The position numbers and the translations under genes were made by a program. The notes under the pieces are model-generated. The model was not told the DNA's origin. It did no database searches and saw only the letters and a list, made by a program, of their open reading frames with translations. From Nannobrachium achirus (taxonomy: Eukaryota > Chordata > Actinopteri > Myctophiformes > Myctophidae), in NCBI GenBank assembly GCA_963921795.1, contig OY997654.1:4050177-4114176 (forward strand): 64,000 nucleotides of DNA, read 5' to 3'. Shown piece by piece: positions 7,373 to 50,067 of this stretch. Within the stretch, counting starts at the first letter, position 1. The number at the start of each line of letters is the position of its first letter.

Positions 7373-7495
7373 AGGATATGATTCCCACAGAGGGAGGATC
7401 AACAGGAGCAGTGATTGGAGTGATTTTTACACTGATCATCATCTTAGTGGCAGCAGGACTGGGATATAAGTACTGGAGGAAGAAGAAGCAACCTG
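7373..7495 (+). CDS. Transmembrane exon of a type I membrane protein
   Basis: A 123-bp exon, acceptor TGTGTTTCAG and donor CCTG/GTGAGTG, phase 1 to 1. The 41 codons read a juxtamembrane piece (EDMIPTEGGSTG), a hydrophobic span (AVIGVIFTLIIILVAAGLG) and a basic stop-transfer tail (YKYWRKKKQP). The type of exon resembles those following immunoglobulin-like or MHC class I ectodomains, but no such domain is in the window, so family is open. The donor leads directly into a (GT)n tract. It is the most upstream host exon seen. Confidence 0.72.
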
Positions 7496-7505
7496 GTGAG
7501 TGTGA

Positions 7506-7577
7506 GTGTGTGTGTGTGTGTGTGTGTGTGTGTGTGTGTGTGTGTGTGTGTGTGTGTGTGTGTGTGTGTGTGTGTGT
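7506..7577. repeat. (GT)n microsatellite at a splice donor
   Basis: An almost pure GT run beginning about 10 bases after the GT donor of the transmembrane exon. Confidence 0.95.
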
Positions 7578-7579
7578 AT

Positions 7580-8331
7580 TAGGGCTTTCACACCTAGTAT
7601 TTCTTACAGATTGACTAGTTGAAGCCACTGGTAGTCGACTAGTCGTTAACCTATTATGTCATAATAAAGAGCGCTGTGGCACGGCTTTTCACAGCAGCCA
7701 AGTTACCATGACAACATATACACAAACCCACGCGTGCATGTTACTGCAACATAACAAGACCAGCATAGCTGCTACAGTAACAAGGAATGGAAACCCATGG
7801 ACTCACCAAAATCTGCAGTGTCTCTCGTTAAACAAACTACACAATAATCCATCTGCACGTCGGCTAGGCTAGGCTTTAGGCTAGCTCGCTAGTCGCTACA
7901 CAAACAAACCACCGTCTTTTAATTACTTCTAATTAAACCAACATCGGGCAGTCTGTTGTGAACTAATGCTATGTCTTCATTCTTCACTTGTTGCTTTGTT
8001 CGCGCTACCATTTTAAACTGACAACTATTCTGTACTGTACTGTAGCGTAGTCTCTGTAGTGTCATTGCTGCGGTGTGCAGCAATGACACTGGATGAACTT
8101 TAGGTGAACTCTGAGATTAACCCCCGCCGGTGAGGGAGATGATGCAGTGTGGGTGACTGGATAATTATATTCCGTTTATAATGGTTGTTAAAAATAAAAC
8201 TATTACGATAATCGAAACGAAATTAGCTTGCTAGGCCTACATAATGTATACATATATTCTTTTCTTAACAACTTTTCGACTAGTACCTACACAAGATCGA
8301 CTAGTGGTTTTACTAGTTGGTGAAAGCCCTA
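7580..8331. mobile_element. hAT-type element
   Basis: Termini TAGGGCTTTCACACC and GGTGAAAGCCCTA, about 752 bp, no transposase. The flanks GTGTGTAT and GTGTATAT are an approximate 8-bp duplication within a GT/AT microsatellite. Just inside the ends are repeated GACTAGT motifs on both sides. Confidence 0.75.
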
Positions 8332-48390: not shown

Positions 48391-48402
48391 TTGAGGGGTA
48401 GT

Positions 48403-49836
48403 ATCTGTGATTCTTATGTGAAAAGGAAGGGAGTGTTAATCATATTCTGATTATACATTTTTTCAAGTTTATTGAAAAATTCAAAAGGAAATGCAAAGAA
48501 TACTTGTTGAGTTTCACTAATTTAGACGATTGATTCATTGAATATTGCCTCCTATAGCTACATATTAAACTGTAATTATTTGTAGATTTACTGTCCTTTG
48601 AGTTTCTACGTAAACATCAGATTTACAACTCAGGGTAAAGCATACACATAATCAGTGTGTTATATTTACAGTAGGTGTGAGGAGAGCCTAGCAACACCAC
48701 AGCTCTTTCTGTCTGTGGCTGCAGCCACTGAAGCTATCTGTACAGCACTGGTAGCAATGGATTAATCAACAGTAGAGGCATCACTTTCTGCACCCTCCGG
48801 AGTCCTCTGAGAGACTTAATTAGCCATCTGCACGAATGCTTAGGAGTTATTTGAGCATAGCTCCCAAAATCAGCTTTACACTTTAATTGTGACATTGGCC
48901 ATTGAAGCTATTTGACCAAACTAGGCAGTCTACTGATCATTCCAACTAAGCTACTGAAAACCTGGCCATCCATTCATTCACCTTTGGCCTGAACTGCGCC
49001 CCCCCCCCCCCCCCCCAAAAAAAATCTTTTTGAAAGAAAAAAAAAGTTTTTGAAAAAAAAAAAATTTGAAAAAAAAAAAGTTTTTGAAAAAAAAAAAAAA
49101 GATTTCTTCAAAAACGGCCGATGATGACGTCATCATCGGCAGCAAATCTGGACAGCCTGTTTTAAGAACCCGTGGGATACTTTTAACCGTCGCCTTCTCA
49201 AAACCAGAGAAAGACACAACGGTCAGAAATGGGACTTTGTGAGGATAGAAGGTGCTAGTGGGACCCCAAAAAAAGGTTTTAAAATAGGAAAAGTGAATTT
49301 TCACGGTGTATCACCTTTAACAAAAACACAAACAATTTAGCAAATGTAACAAAAAACATAACCCCATTGACCTGATTTGATTATGACTCTCATAATGATA
49401 TCGTACAAATATAAGGAATTAATGACTAATTACAATTGCAATTATTTCAAGCTTTTGTAATTTGTTATAAGTGTACATGGAAAATACAAACATATTGTTT
49501 TAATCACTACTTTTTGTTCAGGTTGAGTGGCTGTAACCTGTCAGAGAGATGCTGTGAGGAGTTAGCATCAGTTCTGTACTCCTCCGGCTTGATAGAACTG
49601 GATCTCAGCAATAATGAGAATCTACAGGATAAAGGTGTTCAGCATCTCTGTGTTAGACTGGGGAGTCCAGACTGTACACTGGAGACCCTCAGGTCAGTAT
49701 CACTGAATATAATATATTCCTGAATTGTGTTATATTGTTGTACATCCACCACACAAGACCTTTTACCCATGCATTTCATCCATAGACATTTCATAAATAT
49801 TTATTTAAACGTATTTTAAGCCTCGGACAAAGCAAT
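48403..49836 (+). repeat. Segmental duplication, copy 2
   Basis: Compact version of the duplicated segment: 48403-48454 matches 30320-30371, 48686-48940 matches 37946-38203, and 48941-49836 matches 41668-42233. It has its own 330-bp insertion (about 48984-49318). That insert contains poly-C, a (T)n(G)(A)n block and an end GGTGTATCACCTTTAAC resembling a TTAA-site MITE. Confidence 0.9.
49522..49692 (+). CDS. NLR leucine-rich-repeat exon 2 (duplicate)
   Basis: 171 bp, phase 2 to 2, identical to the exon at 41919 but for one base that changes G to R in CVGLGSP/CVRLGSP. The acceptor is TTTTTGTTCAG. Splicing both copies extends the LRR array by 57 residues. Confidence 0.92.
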
Positions 49837-49917
49837 TGTGTGTGTGTGTGTGTGTGTGTGTGTGTGTGTGCGTGTGTGCGTGTGTGCGTGTGTGCGTGCG
49901 TGCGTGCGTGCGTGCAG
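49836..49917. repeat. (TG)n(CGTG)n at a splice acceptor
   Basis: A TG tract passing into CGTG repeats that ends CGTGCAG, the acceptor of LRR exon 3. There is no ordinary polypyrimidine tract. Confidence 0.93.
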
Positions 49918-50067
49918 GTTGTCAGGCTGTATGGTCACAAAGGAAGGCTGCTCTCATCTGGTCTCAGCTCTGAGGTCCAACTCTCACCTGAAGGTGTTGG
50001 ATGTGACCTCCAATCCTCTTGGAGATGGAGTGGAGCTTCTCTCTACTCTACCACTTCAGACTCTCAG
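49918..50067 (+). CDS. NLR leucine-rich-repeat exon 3
   Basis: A 150-bp exon, phase 2 to 2, reads LSGCMVTKEGCSHLVSALRS, then HLKVLDVTSNPLGDGVELL and LPLQTLR. It is one LRR pair, slightly shorter than the usual 57-codon unit. The donor CTCAG/GTATGG is good. It is the last firm exon of the NLR in the window. Confidence 0.9.

What the first reader, a model, noticed from the sequence alone, without database searches (positions are those of the whole stretch)
7373..50067. Possible single receptor joining a membrane anchor, GIMAP GTPase, CARD, NACHT and LRRs
Seen: eleven same-strand exons with GT-AG borders. Seven successive junctions up to the NACHT exon are all phase 1 and the later ones phase 2, giving about 1,117 codons without a stop. 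The GIMAP exon starts in the middle of a spliced codon and has no nearby in-frame ATG, so something must precede it. Known: GIMAPs and fish NLRs are normally separate immune proteins. Inferred: phase-1 exon shuffling has fused a GTPase and an inflammasome-type NLR to a transmembrane protein. I recall no described protein with this order.
Basis: partly seen in the sequence, partly recalled or inferred. Interest (0 to 1): 0.92.

Follow-up and report, generated by a model that had tools for sequence, protein, structure and literature searches.

The report
Butyrophilin-like receptor with inflammasome tail
A fish genome appears to encode a family of cell-surface immune receptors whose inner part carries a GTPase and inflammasome-type domains normally found in separate proteins inside the cell, which would couple surface sensing directly to inflammation.

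Summary
The eleven exons, splice borders, phases and open frame are real, after small coordinate corrections. Upstream of the window the gene continues with an IgV exon and a butyrophilin-type IgC exon. TM-linker-GIMAP-linker-CARD recurs, in order and strand, in two other copies on the same contig, and linker-GIMAP-linker-CARD in a third. Among mapped exons, lengths differ only by multiples of three (one exception) and splice dinucleotides are kept. Three sister copies carry a different NACHT exon right after GIMAP; another has PYD-GIMAP-CARD. A second copy also has a FISNA-NACHT exon on the same strand, about 16 kb after its CARD, with the same phase-1 acceptor. I conclude that a butyrophilin-like receptor family has acquired a GIMAP GTPase plus CARD and/or NLR modules by phase-1 exon shuffling. 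GIMAP and CARD in one membrane protein is well supported; NACHT and LRRs in the same transcript is likely but less certain. No transcript data, signal peptide or 3' end was seen; function is inferred; some ATGs in the linkers are kept, which leaves separate genes possible. My literature searches listed no description of this architecture.

The parts
7373..7495 (+). Transmembrane exon with basic stop-transfer tail (KYWRKKK), phase 1-1
   Evidence: recurs in B59, B61, A1, A61 at 79-90% aa identity
16107..16133 (+). Linker exon L1, phase 1-1
   Evidence: Rank 2 splice score of + strand candidates; kept in B59 and A61, 29 nt in A1, not found in B61
17617..17664 (+). Linker exon L2, phase 1-1, paralogous to L3
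   Evidence: low splice score here; copies of 48/48/63/45/48 nt (W, B59, B61, A1, A61); ATG kept in 6 of 7 copies, lost in B61; donor GTAAGT in A1, B61 and m6.78
20048..20677 (+). GIMAP (AIG1) GTPase exon, phase 1-1
   Evidence: PF04548 E 1e-61; PDB GIMAP7 E 8.5e-46; omega 0.63 pooled over 10 pairs
22898..22945 (+). Linker exon L3, phase 1-1
   Evidence: Rank 1 splice score; kept in B59, B61, m6.78, p7.90, m8.55; first ATG lost in 4 of 6 copies, second ATG kept in 6 of 6
27522..27533 (+). Micro-exon L4 (12 nt), phase 1-1
   Evidence: Kept with both splice sites in B59, B61 and m6.78; in B4.2 only its 3' half and donor matched
27802..28041 (+). CARD exon, phase 1-1
   Evidence: 4irl E 5.7e-5; Foldseek top hit NLRP1 CARD; donor kept in 4 of 4 copies compared while read-through ends differ
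28412..30143 (+). FISNA-NACHT-WH-HD2 exon of NLR-C type, phase 1-2
   Evidence: same acceptor and phase in the copy 15.9 kb after the B59 CARD
41919..42089 (+). LRR exon 1, phase 2-2
49522..49692 (+). LRR exon 2, near-identical duplicate of LRR exon 1
49918..50067 (+). LRR exon 3; last exon found
   Evidence: tblastn with the fetched public proteins found no further NLR exon in the window or 20 kb beyond

Best explanation
The exons are the transmembrane and cytoplasmic part of one gene of a butyrophilin-like receptor family: IgV-IgC ectodomain (exons at C17:4035817-4036161 and 4037512-4037787, before the window), TM, short linkers, GIMAP GTPase, linkers, CARD, then FISNA-NACHT and LRRs. SHOWN: the exons, their phases, their conserved order in sister copies, in-frame length changes. 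INFERRED: one transcript and one protein; Ig domains outside, the rest in the cytosol (basic residues follow the TM); ligand or partner binding by IgV-IgC clusters the receptors; the GIMAP domain, loaded with GTP, dimerises and holds the tails together at the membrane; the CARD then seeds ASC/caspase filaments, and in this copy the NACHT-LRR part adds ATP-driven oligomerisation and autoinhibition. It would be a surface-triggered, GTPase-gated inflammasome receptor made by recombination between phase-1 introns.
For: Of 12 AIG1 matches listed on C17 (a capped list, 150 of 781 candidates scored) I read 11; 10 of the 11, W included, are family members (73% or more identity to this GIMAP exon) and one (8.78 Mb) is not (48%). 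Layouts: W and B59 TM-L1-L2-GIMAP-L3-L4-CARD; B61 the same without L1; m6.78 L2 to CARD; p7.90 L2-GIMAP-L3; m8.55 GIMAP-L3; A1 and A61 IgV-IgC-TM-L1-L2-GIMAP-NACHT; m59.95 GIMAP-NACHT; B4.2 PYD-GIMAP-CARD. The L2-GIMAP introns of five units share no stretch common to all five and no common start-exon candidate, whereas L2 and GIMAP are kept in all five. Joined frames without stop: W 1,323 codons, B61 576, A61 475, B59 466, B4.2 (GIMAP plus CARD) 288. Pooled omega: GIMAP 0.63, linkers 0.69. Ectodomain: V-set E 2e-9, butyrophilin IgC E 7.1e-13; PDB CD276 and butyrophilins, E down to 6.8e-28. FISNA-NACHT after CARD on the same strand in W (370 bp) and B59 (about 15.9 kb).
Against: No RNA. The L2 ATG is kept in 6 of 7 copies and the second L3 ATG in 6 of 6, so starts there are not excluded. 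No signal-peptide exon found. No FISNA-NACHT found within 19.7 kb (B61) or 14.2 kb (B4.2) after CARD; W departs from B59/B61 about 30 bp after the CARD exon. Copies are recent and share intron sequence, so shared order alone is weak. A1 has a 29-nt L1 and a frame change near the end of its NACHT exon. CARD omega is near 1 (0.82 pooled, 0.69-1.31 by pair); pooled TM, IgV and IgC omega exceed 1 (2.59, 1.24, 1.15). The W IgC has Leu where the other four copies have Trp. L2 has a weak splice score here. Of 241 public proteins fetched, 120 match AIG1 and 120 NACHT, none both.
Confidence: 0.6

Rival explanations
1. Two genes: a butyrophilin-GIMAP-CARD receptor, and a separate NLR-C gene just downstream whose FISNA-NACHT exon is not joined to CARD.
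For: 2 of 5 CARD-bearing copies have no FISNA-NACHT found within 19.7 and 14.2 kb and a third was read for only 1.5 kb; W departs from its sisters about 30 bp after the CARD exon; 7 of the 8 best non-self relatives of this NACHT exon lie on C24, not near the receptor copies.
Against: Only 370 bp separate the exons; the CARD donor is conserved in 4 of 4 copies compared while read-through ends vary, so a further exon is expected; B59 also has a same-strand FISNA-NACHT with the same acceptor 15.9 kb on; sister type A has another NACHT exon after GIMAP in the same phase.
Confidence: 0.22
2. Three neighbouring genes: the Ig-TM gene ends in L2 (read-through stop near 17705, AATAAA at 17893), with independent GIMAP and NLR genes after it, perhaps starting at the ATGs in L2 and L3.
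For: The L2 donor is weak here (gtagat) and in B59 and p7.90; an AATAAA follows at 17893; the L2 ATG is kept in 6 of 7 copies and the second L3 ATG in 6 of 6.
Against: L2 is 48/48/63/45/48 nt, in frame each time, with donor GTAAGT in A1, B61 and m6.78; the L2 ATG is lost in B61 and the first L3 ATG in 4 of 6; no common start-exon candidate in the L2-GIMAP introns; no AATAAA, only two ATTAAA, in the 2.2 kb after the GIMAP exon; in B4.2 an ATG-led PYD exon with a phase-1 donor precedes GIMAP.
Confidence: 0.11
3. The family is real, but this copy is a decaying relic that makes no working receptor.
For: Trp to Leu in IgC; no 3' end exon found within about 34 kb after the last LRR; introns full of repeats.
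Against: 1,323 codons over 13 exons without a stop and with all AG/GT borders intact.
Confidence: 0.07

Closest known systems
Butyrophilins / B7 family (BTN1-3, CD276)
   Same: IgV-IgC-TM; the IgC matches Pfam's butyrophilin Ig-C model; best PDB matches are CD276 and BTN
   Different: Known butyrophilins have short tails or a B30.2 domain inside (recalled); here the tail is GIMAP plus CARD and/or NACHT
Zebrafish Gbp3/Gbp4 (GTPase plus C-terminal CARD)
   Same: A GTPase joined to a CARD; the best PDB match of this CARD is a zebrafish GBP-type CARD, 4irl. [quoted passage not shown]
   Different: GBP not GIMAP; no Ig, TM or NACHT
Teleost NLR-C (FISNA-NACHT-LRR, with or without B30.2)
   Same: The same large FISNA-NACHT exon and LRR exons, each further domain its own exon, exon shuffling (PMC4852459, passages)
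   Different: Described members have peptide repeats or death folds in front (passages); no GIMAP, TM or Ig is mentioned in the passages seen; no B30.2 found here
GIMAP8-like multi-AIG1 proteins of fish
   Same: AIG1 domain about 60% identical at best
   Different: Mostly strings of AIG1 domains; BLAST with our CARD, NACHT, IgV and IgC found no match in the 120 listed, though P0091 bears PF05729 in an unfiltered list of overlapping P-loop families
ASC (PYD-CARD)
   Same: Sister copy B4.2 has an ATG-led PYD exon, GIMAP and CARD
   Different: A GTPase sits between PYD and CARD

Membership tests
Butyrophilin-like receptor | V-set then butyrophilin-type IgC, each on a phase 1-1 exon | tested here: met
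Butyrophilin-like receptor | Signal peptide exon | tested here: inconclusive
   No convincing exon in fetched upstream DNA by crude scans
Butyrophilin-like receptor | Single TM after the Ig domains | tested here: met
   hydrophobic stretch read from sequence
GIMAP | Complete AIG1 domain with GTP-binding motifs | tested here: met
   Pfam 9-207 of the exon against 2-203/212; motif names recalled
GIMAP | GTP binding and dimerisation | not testable with these tools
   Needs protein
CARD superfamily | Six-helix death fold close to NLRP1-type CARDs | tested here: met
   Pfam CARD model not hit; Foldseek E only 0.1
Teleost NLR-C | FISNA plus NACHT, winged helix and HD2 on one large exon, then LRR exons | tested here: met
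   FISNA 33.5 bits against cut-off 28.1
Teleost NLR-C | Cytosolic, with peptide-repeat or death-fold N terminus | tested here: inconclusive
   A CARD precedes; joining to the TM part is inferred from genomic DNA
Inflammasome receptor | CARD-dependent ASC/caspase activation | not testable with these tools
   Needs cells

The most novel reading that the evidence does not exclude
A whole family of membrane-anchored NLR-like receptors exists in this fish, in which a butyrophilin ectodomain is covalently linked to a GIMAP switch and to interchangeable CARD or NACHT effectors, giving surface-triggered, GTPase-gated inflammasomes, a receptor class not described before as far as my searches show; PYD-GIMAP-CARD sisters would act as their cytosolic adaptors.
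Probability: 0.45. Interest if true: 0.95.

Novelty: new variant of a known kind. Interest (0 to 1): 0.86.

Why it matters
Inflammasome receptors are known as cytosolic sensors and butyrophilins as surface molecules that talk to other cells (recalled). A single chain joining both would mean that contact or ligand binding at the surface can directly seed an inflammasome, and it would give GIMAPs, whose mechanism is still unclear, a concrete role as an oligomerisation switch between receptor and effector. The sister copies make exon shuffling around one module directly visible.

Tried and rejected
Public protein search by region: TM to CARD gave AIG1 proteins in the best 120 of 1,969; the CARD region gave one turtle protein among 301 candidates; GIMAP to NACHT gave NLRs without AIG1 in the best 120 of 7,988.

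TM as a third copy of the L2/L3 linker: the 5' borders look alike, but exon-only comparison does not support it. L2 or L3 as start exons: thought unlikely, not excluded (one of 7 L2 copies and 4 of 6 first L3 ATGs are lost, but the second L3 ATG is kept in 6 of 6). CARD as the last exon: unlikely, the donor is kept and read-through ends differ. A shared exon after CARD in B59 and B61: shared stretches found, no convincing open frame seen. Signal peptide exon: not found. Genome-wide counts of CARD and Ig exons: not obtained, the search machine did not answer.

I also withdrew a note that many NACHT copies are split by a frame change: the pieces lie in one open frame.
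Full report
Where it lies. The window is C17:4050177-4114176 (+) of a 1.66-Gb genome of 564 contigs. No species name is given. Among the 120 listed public matches of the GIMAP-to-NACHT query, those with the highest identity (about 65%) are NLRs of Centroberyx, Polymixia and Myripristis, so an acanthomorph fish is my inference.

Three borders needed correction: L4 27522-27533, FISNA-NACHT 28412-30143, LRR3 49918-50067. Pfam confirms AIG1, FISNA, NACHT, winged helix, HD2 and LRR. 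The CARD is missed by Pfam but found by PDB sequence comparison (zebrafish GBP-type CARD, E 5.7e-5) and by fold (NLRP1 CARD on top), although the model is moderate (pLDDT 76, two sequences) and its best Foldseek E-value is only 0.1.

Are the tiny linker exons real? TM and especially L2 do not stand out by this score. L2 and L3 are reciprocal best ungapped matches among 7,527 post-AG sites; over their first 30 nt with gaps L3 is only among the best 10 of 3,837.

Sister copies settle much of the question. The AIG1 search (capped, 150 of 781 candidates scored) listed 12 matches on C17. I fetched DNA at 11; 10, W included, are close relatives of this GIMAP exon (73% or more), one (8.78 Mb) is not (48%), and 8814775 was not read. 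Layouts: W (this window) and B59 (59.9 Mb, minus strand) have TM-L1-L2-GIMAP-L3-L4-CARD; B61 (61.49 Mb) the same without L1; m6.78 L2-GIMAP-L3-L4-CARD; p7.90 L2-GIMAP-L3; m8.55 GIMAP-L3; A1 (4.02 Mb) and A61 (61.47 Mb) TM-L1-L2-GIMAP followed after 1-1.5 kb by another NACHT exon (about 40% identical to W's); m59.95 GIMAP and, 2.1 kb on, the same kind of NACHT; B4.2 (4.22 Mb) an ATG-led PYD exon (PF02758 E 2.7e-18), GIMAP and CARD. The units m6.78, p7.90, m8.55 and m59.95 were read over 10-11 kb only, so their missing parts are not evidence of absence.

These copies are recent enough to share intron sequence, so shared order alone would be weak. The stronger points are these. (1) Mapped exon lengths differ by multiples of three: L2 48/48/63/45/48, TM 123/120/126/123/120, CARD 240/240/231/249, GIMAP 630/630/630/618/612, L3 with a 3-nt deletion in m8.55. 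The exception is L1 of A1, 29 nt; the A1 GIMAP and B4.2 L4 borders could not be mapped by the script and are left out of the table. (2) Splice dinucleotides are kept in every mapped exon. (3) The L2-GIMAP introns of five units have nothing common to all five, and no shared start-exon candidate. (4) The CARD donor is kept in four copies while the read-through ends differ. (5) B4.2 has a start exon (PYD) with a phase-1 donor before GIMAP. (6) Pooled omega is 0.63 for GIMAP and 0.69 for linkers, over non-independent pairs and not tested for significance; CARD is 0.82 with pairs from 0.69 to 1.31, so constraint there is not clear; IgV, IgC and TM are above 1 (1.24, 1.15, 2.59), on few changes. The ATGs cut both ways: the L2 ATG is lost in B61 but kept in 6 of 7 copies; the first L3 ATG is lost in 4 of 6, the second kept in 6 of 6.

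The ectodomain. Upstream of TM in W, A1, A61 and B61 lies an IgV exon, and in these four and B59 an IgC exon. For W they are at C17:4035817-4036161 and 4037512-4037787, outside the window. Pfam calls them V-set (E 2e-9) and butyrophilin IgC (E 7.1e-13); the best PDB matches are CD276 and butyrophilins. No signal-peptide exon was identified. B59 has no IgV in the 7.8 kb read before its TM.

Does NACHT-LRR belong to the same transcript? In W the FISNA-NACHT exon starts 370 bp after CARD, phase 1 to phase 1. W's sequence departs from B59 and B61 about 30 bp after the CARD exon. A genome search with this NACHT exon (103 matches listed; 76 of 603 candidates scored) found 7 of its 8 best non-self matches on C24, but also one at C17:59881632-59883101 on the minus strand, about 15.9 kb behind the B59 CARD; its acceptor and phase equal W's and those of a C24 copy. 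With 603 candidates spread evenly, a same-strand copy within 15.9 kb of one given place has a chance of about 0.003 (my arithmetic; these genes cluster, so it is rough). Against it: none found within 19.7 kb after the B61 CARD or 14.2 kb after B4.2, and 5.6 kb of the B59 interval was not read. I put BTN-TM-GIMAP-CARD in one protein at about 0.83, and inclusion of NACHT-LRR in W at about 0.65.

Mechanism (inferred). IgV-IgC outside binds a ligand or partner; clustering brings GIMAP domains together; GTP-dependent dimerisation (recalled for GIMAPs) fixes the cluster; CARDs seed ASC/caspase filaments. Zebrafish Gbp4, a GTPase with a CARD, needs Asc and its GTPase activity for inflammasome function, and its authors propose that it recruits Asc through the CARD (PMC4932187, abstract and passages). 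NLR-C genes have one domain per exon outside the FISNA-NACHT exon and shuffle exons (PMC4852459, passages). All junctions being phase 1 is what would let Ig-TM, PYD, GIMAP, CARD and NACHT be exchanged.

Novelty. Ten full-text searches were answered. Those combining AIG1/GIMAP with NACHT, CARD, FISNA, NLR or butyrophilin listed no paper that by title, abstract start or the passages I opened describes such a protein; three of them (13, 27, 83) matched 21,790, 134 and 403 papers, of which 15 each were listed. I saw passages, not whole papers, of PMC12436146, PMC11192531, PMC6690157, PMC4852459, PMC4932187, PMC13403563 and PMC11346364. Subscription papers and preprints are not in that library. Of 241 public proteins fetched, none matches both AIG1 and NACHT.

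Verdict. Proof of a single transcript is still needed.

Noticed in passing
G000:C17:4221488-4228822 (unit B4.2, loci L018-L019): An ATG-led PYD exon, GIMAP exon and CARD exon in phase: an ASC-like PYD-GIMAP-CARD gene; no Ig, TM or L2 found in the 18 kb read before it.
   Followed up: partly
G000:C17:61472050-61475564 (A61), 4019170-4023010 (A1), 59946001-59956000 (L030): Three sister units have a different NACHT exon (weak FISNA) after GIMAP, phase 1 where checked (A61, A1); the A1 copy has a frame change near the end of that exon.
   Followed up: partly
window 41919-42089 and 49522-49692: Two LRR exons and their flanks are near-identical duplicates 7.6 kb apart.
   Followed up: no
window 745-2811 and 55659-57417: Two regions that look like inverted repeats with long open frames on both strands, perhaps transposon genes (seen by eye); identity not checked.
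   Followed up: no
window 43590-44090 and 41180-41500: Tandem repeats of a unit of about 50 bases and of a short unit (atgctaatgctaac), seen by eye.
   Followed up: no
G000:C17:61501241-61501831 (L025): A divergent GIMAP-like open frame (36% identity) 6 kb after the B61 CARD; own gene or later exon unknown.
   Followed up: no
G000:C24: 7 of the 8 best relatives of the NACHT exon lie on contig C24, which looks NLR-rich; many copies match in two overlapping pieces within one open frame (query residues about 9-497 and 465-576), which suggests an internal insertion or duplication that W lacks.
   Followed up: no
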